From: Sphingobium sp. AP49 | GTDB taxonomy: Bacteria > Pseudomonadota > Alphaproteobacteria > Sphingomonadales > Sphingomonadaceae | DNA length: 64,000 bases | Assembly (NCBI RefSeq): GCF_000281715.2 | Contig: NZ_CP124576.1 | Location: forward strand, 3,755,001 to 3,819,000 | Direction of reading: 5' to 3' | Shown: positions 37,093 through 46,935 of the stretch, piece by piece | Layout of the letters: each line of letters starts with the position of its first letter | How positions within the stretch are numbered: position 1 is the first letter of the stretch | Notes under the pieces: model-generated | Told to the model about the DNA's origin: nothing | What the model saw: the letters and a program-made list of their open reading frames with translations, nothing else | Database searches by the model: none | Made by a program: the position numbers and the translations under genes

Positions 37093-38394
37093 ATGAACCT
37101 TGCCCTGCTCGGCTTCCTGATGGTCGCCACCTTCATGACGCTGATCATGACCAAAAAGATGACACCGCTGGTCGCGCTGATCGTCATCCCTTCGCTGTTC
37201 GGCGTGATCGCCGGCCAGGCCGCCGGCCTTGGCGACATGATGATCGATGGCATCAAGAATCTGGCGCCCACCGGCGTCATGCTATTGTTTGCCATCCTCT
37301 TCTTCTCGACCATGACCGACACCGGCCTGTTCGATCCATTGGTCGGCCGCCTGGTGAAGCTGGTGCATGGCGATCCGCTGCTGATCCTCTTGGGAACGGT
37401 CGTGCTCTGCGCGGTCGTCAGCCTCGACGGCGACGGATCGACCACCTACATCATCACCATCGCCGCGCTGCTCCCCCTCTATAAAAGGTTCGACATGAAC
37501 CGGCTCTATCTCGTCTGCCTGCTGATGGTGACGAGCGGGATCATGAACCTCACCCCCTGGGGCGGCCCCACCGCCCGCGCCGCCAGCGCGCTGAAGCTGG
37601 ACCCGGCCACCCTTTTCCTGCCGCTCATCCCCGGCATGATCGGCGGCCTTGCCTTCCTGCTCGGCCTCGCCTTCTGGTTCGGCATCAAGGAACGCCGCCG
37701 CCTGGGCAAGGTCCATGCCCACCAGTCCGCCGCCCCGTCGGACCTGGGCGTGTCGCAATATCCCGAAGCCCGCCGGCCGCATCTGCGCTGGTTCAACGGC
37801 CTGCTGGTGGTAGCGCTGCTGGTGCTGTTGGTCTGGGGTGTGCTGCCGCTGTCGGTGCTGATGATGATCGCCTTCGCCATCGCCATGATCGTCAACTATC
37901 CCGGCGTCGCCCAGCAGAAGGAACGGATCGCTGCCCATGCCGGCAATGTCCTTGCCGTCGTGTCGCTGATCTTCGCGGCCGGCATCTTCACCGGTATCCT
38001 GGGCGGCACCGGCATGGTCGAGGCGATGAGCAAGGAAGTCGTCGGCGTCATCCCGCCCGCGCTTGGCCCCTATATGGCGCCGATCACCGCCCTGCTCTCC
38101 ATGCCCTTCACCTTCTTCCTCTCCAACGACGCCTTCTATTTCGGCATGCTGCCGATCCTGGCCGAAGCCGGCGCCCATTATGGCGTCGAACCGATGGCGA
38201 TCGCTCGTGCCTCGCTGATGGGCCAGCCGGTCCATCTGCTCAGCCCCCTGGTCCCCTCCACCTATCTGCTGGTCAGCCTGGCGGGCGTGGACCTGGCCGA
38301 TCACCAGCGCTTCACCCTGTTGCCCGCCGCCGCCGTTGGCATCGTCATGACCCTGGTCGGCATGATCGCCCTGGCCTTCCCCTTTGTCGCCTAG
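37093..38394 (+). CDS. CitMHS-family citrate:cation symporter (433 aa)
   Basis: An inner-membrane carrier with about 11-12 helices, of the family that takes up citrate complexed with Mg2+ or Ca2+ together with protons. Family blocks are VVSLDGDGSTTYIITIAALLP, GIMNLTPWGGPTARAASAL and LSNDAFYFGMLPILAEAGAHYG. It follows the porin by 34 nt. With the binding protein and TctDE it makes a coherent citrate-uptake unit. Confidence 0.93.
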   Translation: MNLALLGFLMVATFMTLIMTKKMTPLVALIVIPSLFGVIAGQAAGLGDMMIDGIKNLAPTGVMLLFAILFFSTMTDTGLFDPLVGRLVKLVHGDPLLILLGTVVLCAVVSLDGDGSTTYIITIAALLPLYKRFDMNRLYLVCLLMVTSGIMNLTPWGGPTARAASALKLDPATLFLPLIPGMIGGLAFLLGLAFWFGIKERRRLGKVHAHQSAAPSDLGVSQYPEARRPHLRWFNGLLVVALLVLLVWGVLPLSVLMMIAFAIAMIVNYPGVAQQKERIAAHAGNVLAVVSLIFAAGIFTGILGGTGMVEAMSKEVVGVIPPALGPYMAPITALLSMPFTFFLSNDAFYFGMLPILAEAGAHYGVEPMAIARASLMGQPVHLLSPLVPSTYLLVSLAGVDLADHQRFTLLPAAAVGIVMTLVGMIALAFPFVA

Positions 38395-39442
38395 GGGATT
38401 GGACACGCTCCTCCGCTTCCTGTCGGCGCTTGCCGTCGGGGCGGCCGGCGGCGCGCTTTTCTGGTCGATCCATGCGCCACTGCCCTGGGTGCTCGGATCG
38501 ATGGCGGCCTGCGCGGTCGCCAGCGTCGCCGGTTTGCCGATCCAGGCCTCCGCCGCCACCCGCCGCCCGATGGCGGCGGTGATCGGCGTGGTGCTGGGCA
38601 GTAGCTTCGGCCCGCACCTCCTGCCGCAGGTGCGCGAATGGATCGTCCCGCTCGCCGCCCTGCCCTTCTTCCTCGCCACCGCCGCGCTGCTGTGCGTCAC
38701 CTATTTCCGCAGGATTGCGAAATTCGATCCGGCCACCGCCTATTTCGCCGGCATGCCCGGCGGCATTGCCGAGATGGTGGTGATGGGGGCCGAACGCGGT
38801 GCTGACGAACGCGCCATCGGCCTGATCCACGGCGCGCGCATCTTCCTCGTCGTCTTCATCCTGCCCTTCCTGATCCGGCTCGATCATGTGCCGGTCGCGG
38901 CCAGCCGGATCGCCCCCGTGACGGGCGATATAGCCAGTTGGTCATTGCTCTTCTGGGGCCTGGGTTGCGCGGCGATCGGGCTCTTGATCGGCCGCCTGTT
39001 GCGCCTGCCGGCCTGGCATCTGGTCGGGCCACTCGCGGTCAGCGCGGCGGTGCATATGAGCGGGCTGGCCGATTTCCGCATTCCCGGCTGGGCGCTGGCG
39101 GCGGCACAGGTGGGGCTGGGCGCAACGATCGGCTGCCGCTTCGTCGGGCTGAGCCTGAAGGAATTGCTGCGCACGTTGGCGCTGGCGGCGGGATCGACAG
39201 CCATTTTGCTGGCCGTCACCTTCGCCTGGGCGGCGGGGATCGGCACGCTCGCCGGGGTCGATCCGGTGCTGCTGACGCTCGCCTATTCGCCGGGCGGCCT
39301 AGCGGAAATGAGCATGGTCGCGCTCAGCCTGGCGCTGGAGCCGGGCGTCGTCATCATCCACCATCTGACCCGCGTGATCCTGGTTCTGATCGGCGCGCCG
39401 ATCGGCTTTGCCTCCATGGGACGGAAAGGCGGGGCCGACTGA
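38384..39442 (+). CDS. AbrB-family integral membrane protein (about 352 aa, non-ATG start)
   Basis: Two homologous halves of membrane helices, the AbrB duplication family formerly named after ammonia monooxygenase or AbrB regulators; the real function is not known, and a transport role is plausible. Blocks include AAVIGVVLGSSFGPHLL, YFAGMPGGIAEMVVMG in the first half and TLAYSPGGLAEMSMVAL in the second, the repeated GG(I/L)AEM motif. No ATG fits; TTG at 38384 (overlapping the CitMHS stop) or TTG at 38399 is the likely start. It may be co-transcribed with the citrate carrier. Confidence 0.85.
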   Translation: MSPRGLDTLLRFLSALAVGAAGGALFWSIHAPLPWVLGSMAACAVASVAGLPIQASAATRRPMAAVIGVVLGSSFGPHLLPQVREWIVPLAALPFFLATAALLCVTYFRRIAKFDPATAYFAGMPGGIAEMVVMGAERGADERAIGLIHGARIFLVVFILPFLIRLDHVPVAASRIAPVTGDIASWSLLFWGLGCAAIGLLIGRLLRLPAWHLVGPLAVSAAVHMSGLADFRIPGWALAAAQVGLGATIGCRFVGLSLKELLRTLALAAGSTAILLAVTFAWAAGIGTLAGVDPVLLTLAYSPGGLAEMSMVALSLALEPGVVIIHHLTRVILVLIGAPIGFASMGRKGGAD

Positions 39443-39451
39443 CCGGCCCCG
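39430..39451. terminator. Terminator-like hairpin between AbrB-family and TerC-family genes
   Basis: CGGGGCCG (39430-39437) pairs perfectly with CGGCCCCG (39444-39451). The loop contains the stop codon of the upstream gene, and GTTTTAG follows about 10 nt later on the plus strand. It can serve both convergent genes. Confidence 0.5.
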
Positions 39452-39463
39452 CACTTCTTCGTT

Positions 39464-40117
39464 TTAGAACAGGGTGATAAGACCCGTCGCCGGGTCGATC
39501 GCGCCTTCATAGATCATCTTGGCGGCGACATAGAGGATCACGACGAGACCGAAATAGGCGATCGCACGATAGCGTTCGATCACGCGGGCCAACAGGTTCG
39601 CCGCCACGCCCATCAGCGCGACCGACAGGACAAGCCCGATCACCAGGATGCCGGGATGCGCGCGCGCCGCACCGGCCACCGCCAGCACATTGTCCAGGCT
39701 CATGCTGACATCGGCGATCGCGACCGCCCAGGCGGCCTGGGCGAAACCCTTGGGCGCGGCCTTGCCCGACATATGCTCGGCATTTTCAGGGTGGCCGTGC
39801 GCGCGCAGTTCGCGCCACATCTTCCAGGCGACCCAGACCAGCAGCAAGCCACCGGCAAAGACCAGGCCGACCAGTTGCATCAATTGTGTCACCAGCAGCG
39901 CGAAGGCGATGCGCAGCACCAGCGCCGCGATCACACCGATCGCGATCACCTTGCGGCGAGATGCAGGCGGCAGGCCGGCCGCCAGGGCGCCGACGACGAT
40001 CGCATTGTCCGCCGCCAGCATGATGTCGATCAGCACGACCTGGCCAAAGGCGGCCAGCGCGGATGGAGAGCCGAGATTGGAGAAATCGGCGACTATGTGT
40101 GTCCAGATATCGTTCAT
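39464..40117 (-). CDS. TerC-family integral membrane protein, possible metal exporter (217 aa)
   Basis: Seven hydrophobic helices with the duplicated family signature: IDIMLAADNAIVVGALAAGL in the first half and IADVSMSLDNVLAVAGAARA in the second, each with the acidic D-N pair thought to line a cation path. YkoY/Alx/TerC relatives export Mn2+ or take part in metal handling. The ATG at 40117 (MNDIWTHI) is preceded by GAGAGG; the frame to 40144 adds only leader sequence. The leader at 40118-40261 folds into several stems, one of which covers the ribosome site. Confidence 0.9.
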   Translation of the reverse strand: MNDIWTHIVADFSNLGSPSALAAFGQVVLIDIMLAADNAIVVGALAAGLPPASRRKVIAIGVIAALVLRIAFALLVTQLMQLVGLVFAGGLLLVWVAWKMWRELRAHGHPENAEHMSGKAAPKGFAQAAWAVAIADVSMSLDNVLAVAGAARAHPGILVIGLVLSVALMGVAANLLARVIERYRAIAYFGLVVILYVAAKMIYEGAIDPATGLITLF

Positions 40118-40261
40118 AAATCCTCTCGCCGTCCCGCAAGGCAACGAGGTGAGAACATCACCGTCGCAGCGAGCAGCCTATTGGGTGTGAATTGGGCCGT
40201 CGCCGATTAGACCAGCAGCCTGTCATCAACCTTTCAGCACGCCTCCTCCGGACCGACGGCC
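40118..40261 (-). promoter_or_regulatory. Structured 5' leader of the TerC-family gene, possible riboswitch
   Basis: On the transcript a hairpin at 40149-40122 pairs a CCTCG with CGAGAGG and so hides the ribosome-binding GAGAGG. A second stem, GGTGA/TCACC (40162-40148), shares two bases with it and would compete. Further upstream an 8-bp perfect stem (40254-40261 with 40195-40202) encloses 51 nt. TerC/YkoY genes are often under Mn2+-sensing yybP-ykoY riboswitches. I cannot identify that motif's hallmark loop GGGGAGUAG here, so the class is left open. Confidence 0.4.
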
Positions 40262-40592
40262 GTGACCAGGGCTGACACGGTCCATAGGCCAGAAAATATG
40301 TAGAACACACGCCCCTTCGGATGCGTGCGGCGTGACAAAACGGGCGCAAACGATACTGGCAATATTCCGACCGCCCTATTCAATCACTTGATAAATTTGA
40401 ATAATTATATTTCGATAAGCATCATCATTGCGCTCTGCCGCTAGGAAGCGCGTGCGACGGAAGAGGTGCGCAAATCTTGTAAAATGGCCGATTGCCCCAT
40501 TTCATTCTTAATCGGACATTGTGCTTAATATCGGTCGGGCTGAAGATATGCCGTACCGGCCGAACCGATCGGCATGGCGGCGAGCAGAAGGA
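40262..40592. other. Intergenic region with AT-rich block upstream of the PAS gene
   Basis: No gene is seen. Bases 40377-40431 are strikingly AT-rich for this GC-rich genome (TTGATAAATTTGAATAATTA and flanks) and probably hold promoter elements of the PAS gene. A GC hairpin lies at about 40308-40333 (CACGC with GCGTG). Confidence 0.4.
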
Positions 40593-41543
40593 ATGGCCGT
40601 GCCCGACGCCAATACCGATCGCGTATCCGCCGCCGAAATGGTGCGCCATTTCTCGTCCATCCGGAAGCGGGCAGCGCAGGCGCCCGTCTACATCACCCAT
40701 CATGGCCGTGACACCCATGTCCTGTGTCCAGCACATCATTTCCATGCCCTTCACGATCTGGGGGGACAGGCCGAGCAATCCATCCTGCCGCTCGATGCAC
40801 TACAATTGTCGGCCTGGATCGACCAGGGCATGATCCTGTTCGACCAGGATGGCATGGTGACCCATGCCAATGGCGCATTGCTGGCCATGATGCCGCACGA
40901 TCCCAATGGCATGATCGGTACGCCGCTATTCACGGCTCTGCCAGAACTGTCGGGCAGCCTGGCGGAACCCTATGTGCGTCGTGCGATGCGGCATGCCGAA
41001 CTGGCCTTGTTCGACATGCGCTCGCCCTTTCTGCCCGACCGTTGGCTACAATGCCGGATCGCACCGGTCGGCCGGCAGATCGTGTTGTTGATCCGCGATG
41101 TCACGCGCGACATGGATGCCCTGCGCCAGGGAGAGCAGCAGGATGAACTCATGCGGGCGATCGAGGCCAGCGGCCAGGTCGGCTATGTCCGACTGACGGC
41201 ACGCGGCTATGTGCAGAGCGTCAACGACGCCTTTGCCGCGCTGATCGGCATGGCGGAACGACAGATGATCGACATGCATTTCTGTCGCCTGACTGAACCC
41301 AATGCGCGTATCGCACTCAGCGACGAATTGGAAATCGTGCTTGGCCAGGGAAAGGATCGCGCCGTGCGCGCCCGGTTGCTGCACGGGGAAGGTCGCTTGC
41401 TCGACGTCCAGATGGGCATGACCTGCATCCGCAGCGCCTATGGCCATGATGGGGCTGCCGTCATTGTCAGTCCCGCAGTCCATGTGCAGCAACCGACCGG
41501 CTTCACCGACAACATGAATGGGCACAATCTGCGAATCGCATAA
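40593..41543 (+). CDS. PAS-domain protein without visible output domain, next to the peptide export locus (316 aa, start uncertain)
   Basis: The N-terminal about 55 residues resemble a Phd/YefM-like antitoxin fold (VSAAEMVRHFSSIRKRAAQAPVYITHHGRDTHVL). Two PAS-like domains follow: MILFDQDGMVTHANGALLAMM at about 80-100 and VRLTARGYVQSVNDAFAALIG at about 205-225. No kinase, GGDEF or HTH domain is present. It lies 227 nt upstream of the double-glycine peptide gene on the same strand, so a regulatory or sensing role for that locus is likely. The start could also be at 40548 or 40521; 40593 gives MAVPDANTDRVS. Confidence 0.65.
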   Translation: MAVPDANTDRVSAAEMVRHFSSIRKRAAQAPVYITHHGRDTHVLCPAHHFHALHDLGGQAEQSILPLDALQLSAWIDQGMILFDQDGMVTHANGALLAMMPHDPNGMIGTPLFTALPELSGSLAEPYVRRAMRHAELALFDMRSPFLPDRWLQCRIAPVGRQIVLLIRDVTRDMDALRQGEQQDELMRAIEASGQVGYVRLTARGYVQSVNDAFAALIGMAERQMIDMHFCRLTEPNARIALSDELEIVLGQGKDRAVRARLLHGEGRLLDVQMGMTCIRSAYGHDGAAVIVSPAVHVQQPTGFTDNMNGHNLRIA

Positions 41544-41555
41544 GGTCAGTCAAAT

Positions 41556-41583
41556 TATGTATTATTAGGTACGATAATACATA
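41556..41583. promoter_or_regulatory. Perfect AT-rich inverted repeat upstream of the peptide gene
   Basis: TATGTATTAT (41556-41565) and ATAATACATA (41574-41583) are perfect 10-bp complements with the 8-nt spacer TAGGTACG. It begins 13 nt after the PAS-gene stop and lies about 190 nt before the peptide start. The low GC and lack of T-run argue for a protein-binding operator rather than a terminator. The remaining 41584-41757 shows no gene. Confidence 0.55.
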
Positions 41584-41770
41584 TTACCGACATACTATTG
41601 CAGTTCGCTTCACCAAGGCACTAATTCCAATTACATTCTGTCTCCATCAAAGACACATAGCGCCATCGCTGCATATTGGTGAAATTTTTCTCACGCCATA
41701 TCCATGTCGAGCCGCCTTCCTGTTCCACTCGGATGAAGGCCGGCATCGAGCAAATGAGAAAGGAACTGAT

Positions 41771-41911
41771 ATGCGTACTCTCGAAACGAAAGAGGTTGCC
41801 CAGGTTTCCGGTGGTCTTCTGGGCCTGAAGCTCAATGTCCTGAACCTCGTCAAGATCAGCGCTCGCGTCGATCTGGACGACAAGAAGGATCGTCGCGGCC
41901 GCTACTGCTAA
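41771..41911 (+). CDS. Double-glycine-leader peptide, bacteriocin/microcin-like (46 aa)
   Basis: A short gene with AGGA 7 nt before its ATG. The leader MRTLETKEVAQVSGG matches the double-glycine export consensus exactly: L at -12, E at -8, V at -7, V at -4, and SGG at -3 to -1. Cleavage would release a 31-residue core that is hydrophobic at first (LLGLKLNVLNLVKISA) and then strongly charged (RVDLDDKKDRRGRYC), ending in its only cysteine. The downstream genes encode an adaptor, an ABC transporter with the matching C39 leader peptidase, and a TolC-like channel, so export past both membranes is expected. It could be an antibacterial peptide or a signal; I recognise no close family. It has no glycine-zipper or lanthipeptide features. 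Confidence 0.85.
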   Translation: MRTLETKEVAQVSGGLLGLKLNVLNLVKISARVDLDDKKDRRGRYC

Positions 41912-41917
41912 GGCCCC

Positions 41918-41942
41918 GCCGCCCCGACCCGGACGGGGTGGC
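41918..41942 (+). terminator. Hairpin between the peptide gene and the export operon, possible attenuator
   Basis: GCCGCCCCG (41918-41926) pairs with CGGGGTGGC (41934-41942) with one G-T wobble and a 7-nt loop, 6 nt after the peptide stop. A short TTTT lies about 25 nt further on. It could keep peptide mRNA in excess over exporter mRNA. Confidence 0.5.
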
Positions 41943-41995
41943 ACCCGCAGCCGCCCCGTCCCTTTTCCGCCCGCTCTCGTCGCACAGGATCGACC

Positions 41996-43234
41996 ATGCT
42001 GTTCCGCTCGGAAGTCGCCGACCAGAAACGCCTGCGATCGCTGGGCCGGACCGTCCCGCTCTACGCCTCGGAAACCCTGCCGGTCCTGACGCTCCTCCTC
42101 CTGGTGGTCGGTGCCATCGCCTTGTGGCTGGCGACCGGAAGCTATGCCCGGACCGAGATCGTGTCAGGCTGGGTCGTTCCTGCCGGCCCGACGGCCCGCA
42201 TCCTGCCGGCGCAGACGGGCGTGTTGACCAGTCTGTCGGTCCATGAGGGGCAAAGCGTGCGGCGGGGCCAACGGCTCGCTACGGTCGAAATCCAGTCCGC
42301 CAACGATGCCAGCAATGATCCAGGGGGCCAGTCACTTTCGATCATGCAGCGACAGCGCGCTCGGCTGCTGGAGCAGCAACGCTTGTCGAAGCAGGCCAGT
42401 GCACAGGACAGGCAGCGCCTGAACGGAACAGTCGCACAGATGCGCATCCGCCTTGCCGCCATGGACAAGCAGATCGCCATTCAGGGCAAGCGCGTCGGAT
42501 CGGCGCACGACAGCTTCCGCATTCTGAGCGATGCCAACCAGCGCAACTATATCTCGCGCATCGACTTTGAAGGCCAGCGGCGCCTCTATCTGGACGAACA
42601 GGCCCGGCTGCAGTCGCTGATCGCCGATCGCGCAGCGTTGCGCACCCAGTTCGAGGAAGCGCAGGTCCAGGCACTGCAACTGCCGATCGAGCTGGATCGT
42701 CGCATGGCCGAACTGGACGGCAGCGCCATGGTATTGGAACAGCAACAGATCGAAATCGAGAAGGGTCGGACCCAAGCCCTGACGGCTCCGATCAGCGGCA
42801 CCGTCGCCGCGTTGCAACCCCGCGTTGGACAGTCCGTAACTCCTCGTATCCCCGTCCTCTACATTCTGGGCGAAGCGGCCCATCTGGAGGTCGAGCTCTA
42901 TGCGCCCAGCCGCGCAATCGGCTTCGCGCATGTCGGCCAGGAAGTGCGCCTGATGTACGATGCTTTCCCCTATCAGCAGTTCGGCAGTTTCAGGGGCGTG
43001 GTCACGGCGATCGCCCGCAGCGCGCTGGCGCCCGACGAGATCGAAGGGCCGATCAAGCTGGACGAGCCAGCCTATCGCATTCGCGTTCGGCTCGACCGCC
43101 AGCGGATCGCCGCGTTCGGGGAGCAATATCCGATCCAGCCGGGAATGACCTTGCGCGCCAATGTCATCCTGGAACGACAGAGTTTCTTTGACTGGCTGCT
43201 GGAACCGATCAACGCGGTGAGGCGCCGGACATGA
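41996..43234 (+). CDS. HlyD/CvaA-type periplasmic adaptor of a peptide exporter (412 aa)
   Basis: The membrane-fusion component that links the ABC transporter to the outer-membrane channel. One membrane helix at about residues 25-48 (TLPVLTLLLLVVGAIALWLA) is followed by a lipoyl-type half-motif (GVLTSLSVHEGQSVRRGQRLATVE), a long coiled coil at about 105-250 (QRQRARLLEQQRLSKQASAQ onward) and the beta-barrel region with the second lipoyl half (APISGTVAALQPRVGQSV). Start ATG 41996. It overlaps the transporter gene by 4 nt (ATGA). Confidence 0.92.
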   Translation: MLFRSEVADQKRLRSLGRTVPLYASETLPVLTLLLLVVGAIALWLATGSYARTEIVSGWVVPAGPTARILPAQTGVLTSLSVHEGQSVRRGQRLATVEIQSANDASNDPGGQSLSIMQRQRARLLEQQRLSKQASAQDRQRLNGTVAQMRIRLAAMDKQIAIQGKRVGSAHDSFRILSDANQRNYISRIDFEGQRRLYLDEQARLQSLIADRAALRTQFEEAQVQALQLPIELDRRMAELDGSAMVLEQQQIEIEKGRTQALTAPISGTVAALQPRVGQSVTPRIPVLYILGEAAHLEVELYAPSRAIGFAHVGQEVRLMYDAFPYQQFGSFRGVVTAIARSALAPDEIEGPIKLDEPAYRIRVRLDRQRIAAFGEQYPIQPGMTLRANVILERQSFFDWLLEPINAVRRRT

Positions 43235-45429
43235 GCGCACAAGATACCGCCACGCCCCCCTTTGGCACGGGCATGAACCTGCTCAATTTCCGTAATCGCC
43301 CGATGCTCCCCCTGATCCGCCAGTCGGAAGCGGCCGAATGCGGGCTCGCTTGCCTGGCCATGATTGCCGCCTTCCACGGCCACCGCACGACGCTCAGCCA
43401 TTTGCGGCGACGCTTCCCGGTATCGCTGCGCGGCCTGACGCTGGCGCAGTTGATGGAAATGGCCGAAGCGATCGGCCTTTCGGCGCGCGCGCTGCGCGGT
43501 GAGATGGCCGAACTGCCCGACGTTCGCCTGCCCGCCATATTGCATTGGGATCTCAACCATTTCGTCGTGCTCAAGGCAATTCGGCGCGGCCTGTCGGGCG
43601 TGCGCTATATCGTCCATGATCCCGCACGCGGCGCGGTGACGCTCGACATGGCGGAAATGTCTGCCCACTGGACCGGCGTGGTGCTCGAACTCGAGCCTAC
43701 CGCGCAACTGACGAAGGTCAGTCATGGCGTGCGACTGCGCTTGTCCCGGCTGGGTATCAATCTTGTCGGGTTCAAGGGCGCCCTGGCGCAGGCCCTGCTC
43801 CTGTCGATGCTGCTCCAGCTTTTCGCCTTCCTCGCCCCCTTTTATCTGCAGCTTGCGATCGACAAGGCCGTACCGGCCTTCGACACGGCCTTTCTGGGCG
43901 CGCTCGCAGGCGGCTTTGCCGGGCTTGCCCTGCTCGGCCTGATCACACGCGCCCTGCGCGAGTTCATACTGCTCAAGCTGTCAAGTGCCGTGGGCTTCTC
44001 CATGGTCACCGACCTGTTCCGGCATTTGCTGAAACTGCCGGTCGCCTTCTTCGAGCGCCGCCATACCGGTGATGTGCTGAGCCGGTTCGATTCCACCGAA
44101 CCGATCACCGACCTGATGAGCCATGGGCTGGTGGGGAGCGTGATCGACGGCTCGATGGCGCTGTTGACCCTCGCTTTCATGTATTTTTATTCCCCGCTGC
44201 TCGCCAGCGTGGCGCTCGCGACGCTGTGCCTCTTCGCGGTGATACGCGCCATCACCCTGCGCCAGCTGCACCGCATCACGATCGATGTCATCGCCGCCAA
44301 GGCGGAGGAAAGCAGCACGATGATCGAGACGGTGCGCGGCATCGCCACCATCAAGCTGTTCGGGCGGCAGGCGGACCGGCTGCGCCTGTGGCAGAATCGC
44401 CGGGCCGACACGATCAATGCCGACATCCGCCTCAACCGCATGCAGATCGGCTTCACCCTGCTCAGCGAAGGCCTGACCCGGCTGGAGCAGATATTGTTCG
44501 TCTTCCTGGCTGTCGCCATGGTGATCCGCAACGAGTTCACCATCGGCATGGTCTTCGCCTTCCAGGCCTACAAGTCGCAATTCATGGATGCCGGGCTGCG
44601 CTTCGTGGACATGATGAGCCAGTTGAAACTGCTCGACAGCCATGTCGATCGTATCGCCGACATTGCGCTGGAAGCGCCGGAACCGGCGCGCGGGATGACG
44701 GCGCGCACGGGCAAGCCGCCCTTTCGCGGCCGGATCGTCCTGGAGGGGCTACGCTTCGCCTATGGCCATGATGATCCCGAAGTGCTGCGGGGCGTCGACC
44801 TCGTCATCGAACCGGGCGAATCCCTTGCCATCACCGGCGCATCGGGCAGTGGGAAGTCGACCCTCGCCAAGCTGCTCCTGGGCTTTTATCCCCCATCAGC
44901 AGGCCGCATCCTGATCGACGGCGAACCGATGACGCAACTGGGCATCGACAATTTCCGTCGGCATGTCGGCGCGGTGCTGCAGGACGATGTGCTCTATGCC
45001 GGCAGCATCGCGGAAAATATCGCCTTCTTCGATCCGCAGCCAGACCTCAACCTCGTCCTCTATTGTGCCCAGCTCGCCTGTGTCCACGATGATATCGCCG
45101 CCTTGCCGATGGGCTATGACAGCCTGGTCGGCGACATGGGGTCTTCGCTGTCGGGTGGACAGAAGCAGCGCATCTTCCTGGCGCGCGCCTTGTATCAGCG
45201 TCCCCGCATCCTGCTGCTCGACGAAGGCACGGCCAATCTCGACGCCCTTTGCGAAGCGGCGGTCAACCGCAACCTGGCCGACCTGCTGATCACCCGCATC
45301 ATGATCGCGCACCGGCCCGAAACCATTCGCAGCGCGCGCCGCGTCGTGCATATGACGGATGGACGGATTATCGATCCTGCCGCGGCAAACGATCGGCCAC
45401 GCCATGGAAATGAAGGACCGGGCGAGTAA
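43231..45429 (+). CDS. Peptidase-containing ABC transporter (C39 peptidase, CvaB-like, 732 aa)
   Basis: Cuts the double-glycine leader and pumps the core peptide out. The C39 domain at about residues 25-150 has the complete triad: C37 (SEAAECGLACLAMIA), H110 (WDLNHFVVLKA) and D130 (VHDPARG). Six membrane helices lie at about 180-440. The nucleotide-binding domain has Walker A GASGSGKST near 537, signature LSGGQKQR near 640 and Walker B ILLLDEGTANLDA. It overlaps the adaptor by 4 nt and the TolC-like gene by one base (TAATG). The active peptidase predicts a matching substrate nearby, found at 41771. Confidence 0.94.
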   Translation: MSAQDTATPPFGTGMNLLNFRNRPMLPLIRQSEAAECGLACLAMIAAFHGHRTTLSHLRRRFPVSLRGLTLAQLMEMAEAIGLSARALRGEMAELPDVRLPAILHWDLNHFVVLKAIRRGLSGVRYIVHDPARGAVTLDMAEMSAHWTGVVLELEPTAQLTKVSHGVRLRLSRLGINLVGFKGALAQALLLSMLLQLFAFLAPFYLQLAIDKAVPAFDTAFLGALAGGFAGLALLGLITRALREFILLKLSSAVGFSMVTDLFRHLLKLPVAFFERRHTGDVLSRFDSTEPITDLMSHGLVGSVIDGSMALLTLAFMYFYSPLLASVALATLCLFAVIRAITLRQLHRITIDVIAAKAEESSTMIETVRGIATIKLFGRQADRLRLWQNRRADTINADIRLNRMQIGFTLLSEGLTRLEQILFVFLAVAMVIRNEFTIGMVFAFQAYKSQFMDAGLRFVDMMSQLKLLDSHVDRIADIALEAPEPARGMTARTGKPPFRGRIVLEGLRFAYGHDDPEVLRGVDLVIEPGESLAITGASGSGKSTLAKLLLGFYPPSAGRILIDGEPMTQLGIDNFRRHVGAVLQDDVLYAGSIAENIAFFDPQPDLNLVLYCAQLACVHDDIAALPMGYDSLVGDMGSSLSGGQKQRIFLARALYQRPRILLLDEGTANLDALCEAAVNRNLADLLITRIMIAHRPETIRSARRVVHMTDGRIIDPAAANDRPRHGNEGPGE

Positions 45430-46832
45430 TGCTCCCGGGTTCGACCAGGGTGGCGACGCTGCCTGCGGCGATCCTCGCCATCGCATCGCCCGCAGTCGCG
45501 CAGCCATCCTCTGCAAACCCGCCGATGCTGGCGGCGCAGCGACTCCCCCTGACCTATGCCGACATGCAGCCGTCTGATGGCGCGGCGCCACCGACTGACC
45601 TGGCGCGCTGGTGGCAGCGCTTCGACGATCCGGCCGTCACCGCTTTGGCCGAACAGGTCATCATCGCCAACCAGGACATTGCGCAGGCCGCCGCCCGGTT
45701 GACCCAGGCCCGCGCCCGCAGCCGGGGCGCTGCCGCAGCCCGGCTGCCGACGCTGGGCGTCACGCTCGACGCATCGCGCGCGGTCGCTCGCCCCAATGGT
45801 CTGACGGGTTCGCCTAACAGCTTTGTCGGCGCGGTCGCATTGGGCTGGGATCCCGACCTGTTCGGCGGCCTGGCGGACGGCGCCCGCGGGGCCAGGGCCG
45901 ACCTGGCGGCGGCGGGCTATGATCTGGCGTCGGTCCAGCGCGCCGTCGTGGCGGAGGCGATCAATGCCCTCATCAGCTATCGCGGCCTGCAACAGCGCAT
46001 CACCAATGTCCGCAAGGCGCTCGCCACTCAGAGGGAGATATTGGCGGTCATCGAACATCGCCAGCGCAGCGGCATCGCCACCGCCGTCGATGTCGAACAG
46101 GCGCGGTTGCAATTGCTTCAGGTCGAGGCGCTGGTGCCCCAACTGGAAAATGCCCGGGACCAGAATGCCAATCGGATTGCCATGCTGACCAATGAAGCGC
46201 CTGGCCTGCACCCGACATGGCTCGACGCCCGGGTGGCCATCCCGACTGCACCCGGGGCATCGCTGGGCGTACCCGCCGACCTTCTGCGCCGTCGGCCCGA
46301 CGTTATGGCGGCGGAACAACGCCTGCTGGCGGCTGGTGCCGGCATCGGCGTCGCCCGCGCAACATTGCTGCCCAGCCTGTCGCTTGGCGGCCTGCTGACC
46401 GGGGGGGCGACATCGCTGGCCAGCATCGCCGATGGCCTGATCGCATCGGTGATCGGTCGGATCAGCCAGACCCTGTTCGATGGCGGCCGCAACCGGGCCA
46501 TCCTCGCGGAGCGCAAGGGCGCCACCCAAGAGGCGCTTGCCGCCTATCGTACCGCGATCCTAACGGCGGTGGAGGATGTCGAAAATGCCCGCGCGGCCTT
46601 GCGGGCCAGCCAGGGGCGGGTCCGCATCGGCGAGGAGGCAGAGCGGGTCGCACAGAATAATGCGCGGCTGACCCGTGGCCAATATGATATCGGCCTGGTC
46701 GACTTCTTCATCCTGCTGGACGCGGAACAGCAATTGCTCGACCAGCGCGACGATCTTGCCGTTGCCCGCGTCGATCAGGCAACGGCAACGCTGCAACTGG
46801 CCGTCGCGCTGGGTGGCGGCTGGGCCGGCTAA
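45429..46832 (+). CDS. TolC/NodT-family outer-membrane efflux channel (467 aa)
   Basis: Completes the type I exporter. An N-terminal export signal (VATLPAAILAIASPAVAQ) lies before residue 27. The two-fold alpha-barrel pattern follows, with RWWQRFDDPAVTALAEQVIIANQDIAQAAARL at the start, ALGWDPDLFGGLADGARGARADL, and the second-half repeats VPADLLRRRPDVMAAEQRLLAAGA and YDIGLVDFFILLDAEQQLLDQRD. NodT-group members are often lipoproteins, but no lipobox Cys is seen here. The start codon shares one base with the transporter stop. Confidence 0.92.
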   Translation: MLPGSTRVATLPAAILAIASPAVAQPSSANPPMLAAQRLPLTYADMQPSDGAAPPTDLARWWQRFDDPAVTALAEQVIIANQDIAQAAARLTQARARSRGAAAARLPTLGVTLDASRAVARPNGLTGSPNSFVGAVALGWDPDLFGGLADGARGARADLAAAGYDLASVQRAVVAEAINALISYRGLQQRITNVRKALATQREILAVIEHRQRSGIATAVDVEQARLQLLQVEALVPQLENARDQNANRIAMLTNEAPGLHPTWLDARVAIPTAPGASLGVPADLLRRRPDVMAAEQRLLAAGAGIGVARATLLPSLSLGGLLTGGATSLASIADGLIASVIGRISQTLFDGGRNRAILAERKGATQEALAAYRTAILTAVEDVENARAALRASQGRVRIGEEAERVAQNNARLTRGQYDIGLVDFFILLDAEQQLLDQRDDLAVARVDQATATLQLAVALGGGWAG

Positions 46833-46882
46833 AACCCCACCCTTCCCCTGGACGACGAACCGCCTCGGCGCGAAAAAGGGAA

Positions 46883-46913
46883 AAAGGCGAGCACCCGTGG
46901 GGCGCCCGCCTTT
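46883..46913. terminator. Bidirectional terminator between the export operon and a TonB receptor
   Basis: AAAGGCG-A-GC-A-CCC pairs with GGG-C-GC-C-CGCCTTT (two internal mismatches, short GT loop). The stem is A-rich on the left and T-rich on the right, so it can stop both the plus-strand operon ending at 46832 and the minus-strand receptor gene ending at 46936. Confidence 0.65.
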
Positions 46914-46935
46914 CCTGCCAACAATCCGGACGGGA

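What the first reader, a model, noticed from the sequence alone, without database searches (positions are those of the whole stretch)
40593..46832. Complete type I peptide-export locus with an overlooked 46-codon substrate gene
The HlyD adaptor, the ABC transporter with an intact C39 leader-peptidase triad (C37, H110, D130) and the TolC-like channel are coupled by 1-4 nt overlaps. Directly upstream, at 41771-41911, a gene with its own ribosome site encodes a peptide whose leader MRTLETKEVAQVSGG matches every key position of the double-glycine consensus. Such loci are well known as microcin/colicin V systems in enterobacteria but scarce in sphingomonads. A PAS protein takes the upstream place, and no immunity or modification gene is recognisable.
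Basis: partly seen in the sequence, partly recalled or inferred. Interest (0 to 1): 0.88.

Follow-up and report, generated by a model that had tools for sequence, protein, structure and literature searches.

The report
Small secreted peptide with dedicated exporter
A sphingomonad bacterium carries a tiny, previously unannotated gene for a short export peptide next to its own three-part export machine; related peptides with a variable body and a cysteine at or near the tail sit beside the same kind of machine in other sphingomonads, which points to a new family of microcin-like secreted peptides whose action is still untested.

Summary
At 41771-41911 lies a 46-codon gene with a 15-residue double-glycine leader, 84 nt before an HlyD / C39-ABC / NodT export operon joined by 4- and 1-nt overlaps; the C39 triad C37/H110/D130 is intact. 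The gene is real: an 80% identical 46-aa protein exists elsewhere, apparently on the contig that carries the nearest HlyD. I found 18 further members (19 in all). In the four genomes where context could be read, the peptide gene lies beside a C39 exporter. Leaders are near-constant, cores vary, 14 of 19 end in Cys (3 more in Cys-Trp). In three of three loci where the peptide directly precedes hlyD, an RNA hairpin (modest in the window) with a U-rich tail separates them. No convincing immunity or modification gene was seen. Core length (31 aa), glycine content (2/31) and lack of an adjacent immunity gene depart from class II microcins. The 6.7-kb block is missing from the flank stretches of relatives fetched. 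'Scarce in sphingomonads' is not supported: 25 of 396 other sampled family genomes have a related exporter, 11 of the 25 with leader-peptide genes. Export is well supported; antibacterial action is inference.

The parts
40593..41543 (+). Regulator-like protein: Phd/YefM-like N-terminal segment plus two PAS domains (316 aa); possible regulator of the peptide promoter
   Evidence: Pfam PAS_4 E 1.7e-11 with 2 stretches; PhdYeFM_antitox E 1.2e-3, below Pfam's cut-off. Homologs over most of the length in 35 of 94 genus genomes, own included, with 2 more copies in the own genome; no homolog at E 1e-8 beside any of 37 other fetched exporter loci
41544..41770 (+). A+T-rich intergenic region (43% G+C against 64.7% for the window), likely promoter of the peptide gene
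   Evidence: the sigma-70 consensus scan found no site, so the promoter is inferred
41771..41911 (+). Precursor peptide gene, 46 codons: leader MRTLETKEVAQVSGG, predicted 31-aa core LLGLKLNVLNLVKISARVDLDDKKDRRGRYC
41931..41961 (+). 12-bp G+C-rich hairpin followed by CUUUU between peptide gene and hlyD; likely partial terminator
   Evidence: fold of 41909-41975 -30.8 kcal/mol, z -2.1; stronger counterparts at the same place in L073 (z -4.8) and L145 (z -3.8). The simple terminator scan does not list it, and its counts in the region do not exceed shuffles
41996..43234 (+). HlyD-type membrane fusion protein (412 aa)
43231..45429 (+). C39 peptidase-ABC transporter (732 aa), triad C37/H110/D130
45429..46832 (+). 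NodT/OEP-type outer-membrane channel (467 aa)
   Evidence: TIGR01845, 270 bits, cut-off 210
40254..46924 (.). About 6.7-kb accessory block holding the five genes; no similar DNA in the flank stretches of relatives fetched
   Evidence: 7 right-flank and 7 left-flank stretches

Best explanation
A self-contained peptide-export cassette. The 46-aa precursor is recognised through its double-glycine leader by the C39 domain of the neighbouring ABC transporter, cut after G15, and the 31-residue core is pushed through HlyD and the NodT channel out of the cell. A hairpin after the peptide gene would make the short peptide mRNA more abundant than the exporter mRNA. The core (hydrophobic first part, basic tail with terminal Cys, net charge +4) most likely acts as a small microcin-like peptide against competing bacteria; the single Cys may pair two molecules. 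Shown by sequence: the gene, the complete exporter with intact triad, the conserved neighbourhood, the family. Inferred: cleavage, secretion, partial termination, activity, dimer.
For: 46-aa relative, 80% identical, on a contig whose listed length (6013) and sources equal those of the nearest HlyD, 76% identical. Peptide gene beside a C39 exporter in 4 of 4 genomes where context was read: window, G393/L073 and G659/L145 (ABC 67% identical in both) and G321/L151 (ABC 42%). Two more peptide/HlyD pairs share listed contig lengths (12866, 152066). Triad present, C39 domain aligned to 6mpz and 7n87. Constant leader with variable core, as in bacteriocin precursors (general knowledge). Hairpin at the same place in 3 of 3 loci with unlike sequences. 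9 of 18 members give weak Pfam Bacteriocin_IIc matches, best E 0.032. Patchy accessory block.
Against: No convincing immunity candidate in the window or in the stretches scanned beside L073 and L145, which is unusual for a class II microcin. Core is 31 aa with 2 Gly, against 60-90 aa and 12-26% Gly in verified class II microcins (PMC10233263 and PMC11494933, passages; the latter also accepts predicted ones with less Gly). No family model matches the window peptide at E 1. The fold prediction is of low confidence (pLDDT 58.8). The window hairpin is modest (6 of 200 shuffles as good) and terminator scans do not exceed shuffles. No expression or activity data. Leader constancy is partly a product of the search, which collects proteins sharing exact words.
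Confidence: 0.58

Rival explanations
1. The peptide is exported and cut as above but is not a toxin: it is a signal, a metal-binding or redox-active peptide, or a surface/biofilm component, and so needs no immunity gene.
For: No convincing immunity gene in three loci; 17 of 19 members have Cys last or second last, and several tails are rich in His, Cys or Pro. A PAS-type regulator adjoins in the window.
Against: Very variable cores argue against one conserved receptor or partner; no PAS homolog beside L073, L145 or L151.
Confidence: 0.28
2. The peptide is a modified peptide (RiPP) whose enzyme is encoded elsewhere in the genome, acting for instance on the terminal Cys.
For: Cys within the last three residues in 18 of 19 members although cores vary; in other sphingomonad loci C39 exporters sit with ATP-grasp-like ORFs (L101, L102, recognised by eye).
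Against: No modification gene recognised within the 6.7-kb block, nor between the peptide and its neighbours in L073.
Confidence: 0.1
3. The 46-codon frame is a chance ORF and the exporter's true substrate is encoded elsewhere.
For: The own genome was searched only with this family's sequence and profiles, so another substrate of a different family is not excluded. The peptide was found in none of the 93 other genus genomes searched.
Against: 80% identical protein elsewhere, 19-member family, same gene order in L073 and L145, leader found by a model made without it.
Confidence: 0.03

Closest known systems
Microcin V (colicin V) system CvaC/CvaA/CvaB/TolC and other class IIa microcins of Enterobacterales
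   Same: Double-glycine leader of 15-18 aa with hydrophobic residues at -4, -7, -12; C39-ABC with Cys/His/Asp triad; membrane fusion protein; outer-membrane channel
   Different: Core 31 aa instead of 60-90; 2 of 31 Gly; no recognisable adjacent immunity gene; outer-membrane channel encoded in the operon (PMC10233263, PMC9746304, PMC11494933: passages). A hairpin lies between peptide and exporter genes (whether microcin operons have one was not checked)
Cdz contact-dependent system of Caulobacter crescentus (CdzABCDI)
   Same: Alphaproteobacterial small exported peptides with a type I secretion system
   Different: Two glycine-zipper proteins of 84 and 86 aa, an immunity protein CdzI, no outer-membrane channel in the cluster (PMC5380434: passages, one of them from the abstract)
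Double-glycine bacteriocins of Bacteroides without an immunity protein
   Same: Double-glycine leader and no immunity protein
   Different: Another phylum; known here only from one passage in PMC10233263; sequences not compared
PCAT1 and LahT-type C39 proteases (PDB 4ry2, 6mpz)
   Same: Same peptidase family by sequence
   Different: PCAT1 is a Gram-positive single-membrane system (PMC10233263, passage); their substrates were not compared

Membership tests
[quoted passage not shown]
   PF03412, PF00664, PF00005 above cut-off; C37/H110/D130
[quoted passage not shown]
   HlyD_3 and OEP/outer_NodT, overlapping genes
[quoted passage not shown]
   41771-41911
[quoted passage not shown]
   needs mass spectrometry
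Class II microcin | Leader of 15-18 aa ending GG/GA with hydrophobic residues at -4, -7, -12 | tested here: met
   V12, V9, L4 in a 15-aa leader (criteria from PMC11494933, passages)
Class II microcin | Core of about 60-90 aa (5-10 kDa) | tested here: not met
   31 aa (criteria from PMC10233263, passages)
Class II microcin | Glycine content 12-26% (verified members; predicted ones with less are reported) | tested here: not met
   2 Gly in 31 core residues; 4 in 46 with the leader (criteria from PMC11494933, passages)
Class II microcin | Adjacent immunity gene, 51-216 aa, usually with transmembrane helix | tested here: not met
   No convincing candidate among ORFs of 30-250 aa in 40001-42100 (both strands). 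Two hydrophobic minus-strand ORFs there were rejected: 41621-41944 (107 aa, antisense to the peptide; antisense ORFs in L073 and L145 are not hydrophobic) and 40234-40383 (49 aa, TTG start). An immunity gene elsewhere in the genome is not excluded
Class II microcin | Antibacterial activity | not testable with these tools
   needs a bench assay
Class IIb microcin | Ser/Gly-rich C-terminus for siderophore attachment | tested here: not met
   C-terminus DDKKDRRGRYC (criterion from PMC10233263, passages)
Cdz-type glycine-zipper bacteriocin | Glycine-zipper repeats and an immunity protein | tested here: not met
   no GxxxG repeats in the core, read by eye; no convincing immunity candidate

The most novel reading that the evidence does not exclude
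A new family of very short exported peptides of sphingomonads, defined by a near-invariant leader, a hypervariable hydrophobic core and a cysteine at or next to the C-terminus, carried by a dedicated four-gene cassette without immunity or modification genes, with a hairpin that would set the peptide-to-exporter ratio: an immunity-free peptide weapon or signal unlike known class II microcins.
Probability: 0.5. Interest if true: 0.65.

Novelty: new variant of a known kind. Interest (0 to 1): 0.52.

Why it matters
The review PMC10233263 (start of abstract and passages seen) says that the 15 known microcins were all identified from Enterobacteriaceae. This locus and its 18 relatives give a defined, testable peptide family outside that group, with peptides short enough to be made chemically. 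The lack of a convincing immunity gene in three separate loci poses a direct question: how a producer tolerates its own product, or whether the product is a toxin at all.

Tried and rejected
Minus-strand ORFs as immunity genes: 41621-41944 has a hydrophobic N-terminus, but the antisense ORFs in L073 and L145 are not hydrophobic; 40234-40383 (49 aa, TTG start) straddles the left junction and has no support; in L073 a 78-aa frame overlapping the peptide out of frame also passed the hydrophobicity limit and was not believed. PAS protein as a dedicated partner: no homolog beside 37 other exporter loci; in three of six neighbourhoods of its homologs listed (L130, L133, L135) the neighbours looked by eye like Tad pilus and arginine-catabolism genes. 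Beta-strand amphipathicity of the core: reached by 12% of shuffles, so not claimed. AlphaFold2 of the precursor with 18 sequences: pLDDT 58.8, a helix 6-37, uninformative. Genome-contig scan with the ABC: 4 loci at 27-34% identity, not useful. Peptide against plasmids: no match; the ABC matches 851 plasmid records, all under 60% identity, so the exporter kind is common but none there is close. Weak order-wide peptide hits (4 genomes, E 0.028-0.031, two with a stop inside) were taken as chance and not examined; likewise the 10 genus genomes at E 0.17-0.87. A 43.6-kb island between 3287 and 46935 was considered from the order in L175 and dropped when one search showed a rearrangement with the left flank conserved up to 40132-40253.

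Papers: five seen as passages found by term, none in full. Literature searches. Those naming sphingomonads (23, 60, 63) listed no title that deals with such peptides; they cover only the held library and I saw 15 of 25 papers and 10 of 13. Dirix et al. 2004 (Gram-negative double-glycine screen) was seen only as a citation, so its hits were not compared.

Full report
OBSERVATION. The window holds, on the + strand, a PAS protein (40593-41543), a 46-codon ORF (41771-41911), an HlyD-type fusion protein (41996-43234), a C39-ABC transporter (43231-45429) and a NodT-type channel (45429-46832). The overlaps are 4 and 1 nt. An AAGGA lies 6 nt before the peptide's ATG. The window lies at 3755001-3819000 of a 4,506,188-base contig. 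I take the family to be Sphingomonadaceae by inference: HlyD relatives are named Sphingomonas and Novosphingobium, and the contig of family-mate G409 has the length (1131360) of one named Sphingosinicella.

IS THE SHORT FRAME A GENE? A search of about 5.8 billion proteins found one relative, of the same length, P0002, 80% identical over 96%. It is listed on a contig of 6013 bases from sources lgn and ena; the nearest HlyD, P0004 (76% identical), is also listed on a 6013-base contig from the same sources, so the two very probably share that contig. The leaders are identical, 17 of the first 21 core residues are identical, the tail differs. In 93 other genomes of the genus the peptide was not found (10 of them had matches at E 0.17-0.87, taken as chance), and no other genome of the genus in the family sample has the HlyD at E 1e-50. 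So the locus is rare in its genus, but not an orphan.

FAMILY. Searching for the exporter rather than the peptide found two genomes with close relatives: G393 (HlyD 51%, ABC 67%, channel 43%; L073) and G659 (HlyD 49%, ABC 67%, channel 44%; L145). In both, a short frame with the leader MRVLDKNEVSEV[S/A]GG lies directly before hlyD. With these four sequences as a profile (A1) the protein database gave 16 proteins, 14 of them new; a profile of 18 (A2) then found a further member in G321. L4, V12, G14 and G15 are the same in all 19, R2 in 18 (P0136 counted from its second Met-Arg). Cores, cut at the first GG, run from 29 to 52 residues. Fourteen of 19 end in Cys, three in Cys-Trp, one in Cys-Asn-His, one has no Cys. 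Two cautions: the search collects proteins that share exact five-residue words, mostly in the leader, so leader constancy is partly selected; and members are related, so these counts are not independent. The window peptide belongs to a subgroup whose cores begin, after 0-3 extra glycines, with LLGL[K/N]L (P0001, P0002, P0132, P0133, P0135, P0136). P0002 has two Cys; the window peptide has one. No Pfam or NCBIfam model matches the window peptide at E 1; across A2 the best are Bacteriocin_IIc (9 of 18 members, best E 0.032) and TIGR03949 (8 of 18, best E 0.0062), weak and probably leader-driven. The family is thin in genomes: 3 of 397 in the family sample, own included, and, clearly, 2 of 396 in the overlapping order sample, own included.

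CONTEXT. In 4 of 4 genomes where a member's surroundings were read, a C39 exporter adjoins: window, L073 and L145 in the same order; in L151 the peptide faces the end of an ABC gene 42% identical to the window's. By listed contig length, three of the 15 database members other than the window's share a contig with a listed HlyD (6013, 12866, 152066); only 120 of 595 HlyD hits were listed, so more could exist. A leader model made from 17 members without P0001 and P0002 finds only the window ORF in the six-frame window (E 2.9e-4 at genome scale); those 17 were gathered with profiles that included the window peptide, so the test is not fully independent. The A1 profile finds no second member in the own genome (one other hit, E 1.75).

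HAIRPIN. Between peptide stop and hlyD start, the window can form a 12-bp G+C-rich stem at 41931-41961 followed by CUUUU (-30.8 kcal/mol for the stretch folded, z -2.1, 6 of 200 shuffles as good). L073 and L145 have stems of unrelated sequence at the same place followed by U5 and U6 (z -4.8 and -3.8, 0 of 200 each). The simple terminator scan lists only (part of) the L073 one, and its counts do not exceed shuffles in any of the three regions (4 against 4.1, 1 against 1.5, 0 against 2.6). I read the hairpin as a leaky terminator that favours the peptide transcript; this is inference.

IMMUNITY AND MODIFICATION. I listed every ORF of 30-250 aa in 40001-42100 and in the stretches around the peptide in L073 (0.7 kb) and L145 (0.74 kb, up to the contig end) with a hydrophobicity scan. 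Two minus-strand ORFs of the window passed the limit besides the cut end of a neighbouring gene (41621-41944, antisense to the peptide; 40234-40383, 49 aa, TTG start) and one out-of-frame ORF overlapping the peptide in L073; none is convincing or shared. Only about 100 nt separate the channel gene from the next gene downstream. No modification gene is recognisable in the block or, by eye, next to L073.

ACCESSORY BLOCK. DNA homologous to part of 37093-41543 was found in 11 of 11 relatives searched, chosen for a close TonB receptor. In the 7 left-flank stretches fetched, similarity stops at 40132-40253; in the 7 right-flank stretches fetched (6 of the 7 genomes the same) it stops at 46925-46935, the end of a TonB-dependent receptor gene. 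None of these stretches has DNA similar to 40254-46924 in those comparisons. In G110 and G002 the left flank is followed, about 0.2 kb on, by sequence matching 57030 downwards, so the block sits at a rearrangement junction. It has the look of an acquired or lost unit that includes the PAS gene; the G+C of its long genes (61-69%) does not set it apart.

PAS PROTEIN. Two PAS domains with a weak Phd/YefM-like N-terminus. Homologs over most of the length occur in 35 of 94 genus genomes, own included, with two more copies in the own genome. It has no homolog at E 1e-8 beside any of 37 other exporter loci. A regulatory role here is possible but not shown.

ARE SUCH LOCI SCARCE IN SPHINGOMONADS? No. 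Of 396 other genomes sampled from the family, 25 have a related HlyD at E 1e-50 or better; all 25 fetched loci carry a C39 ABC, 43-67% identical; 11 of the 25 (L073 among them) have 29 short ORFs with a strict double-glycine leader, against 0-3 per shuffled set in ten shuffles. The pattern was written after seeing leaders in these loci, so the shuffles, not the pattern, are the control. The other 14 loci gave no such ORF, which may mean other substrates or a pattern too strict. The cores found are of several kinds, among them glycine-rich ones (L087, L088) that resemble Cdz proteins by eye.

COMPARISON. Verified class II microcins have cores of 60-90 aa, 12-26% glycine and an adjacent immunity gene (PMC10233263, PMC11494933, PMC9746304; passages only). 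The window peptide meets the leader and exporter criteria and fails the other three. It works like a class II microcin export system; it is not filed as a class II microcin. The same review notes double-glycine bacteriocins of Bacteroides without an immunity protein (passage), so lack of one does not exclude a bacteriocin.

VERDICT. A real gene, a real family, an ordinary kind of exporter and an unusual substrate. Export and cleavage are likely (about 0.9, my estimate); antibacterial action is the best guess (about 0.6 given export).

Noticed in passing
L101 (G033) and L102 (G021): Closely alike loci with the same leader peptide (core rich in Thr, Asp, Glu, Cys) and a neighbouring ATP-grasp-like ORF, recognised by eye: possible graspetide clusters with a C39 exporter.
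   Followed up: no
L083, L084, L087, L088, L106, L108: A recurring double-glycine peptide with the core motif GP[ND/H]GxGCTEP or close to it (variants in L087 and L088), beside C39 exporters of several sphingomonad genomes.
   Followed up: no
window 40593-41543; L130-L137: A sphingomonad family of proteins joining a Phd/YefM-like N-terminal segment to two PAS domains, in 35 of 94 genus genomes; some homologs' neighbours look by eye like Tad pilus and arginine-catabolism genes.
   Followed up: partly
window 40132-40253 and 46925-46935: Rearrangement junctions relative to G110 and G002: there the left flank is followed by sequence matching window 57030 downwards, and the TonB receptor end adjoins (G002) or lies near (G110) sequence matching window 3287 or 3213 downwards.
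   Followed up: partly
L151 7945-8958: A Stealth-type sugar-phosphate transferase-like ORF (by eye) downstream of the C39 exporter of G321.
   Followed up: no
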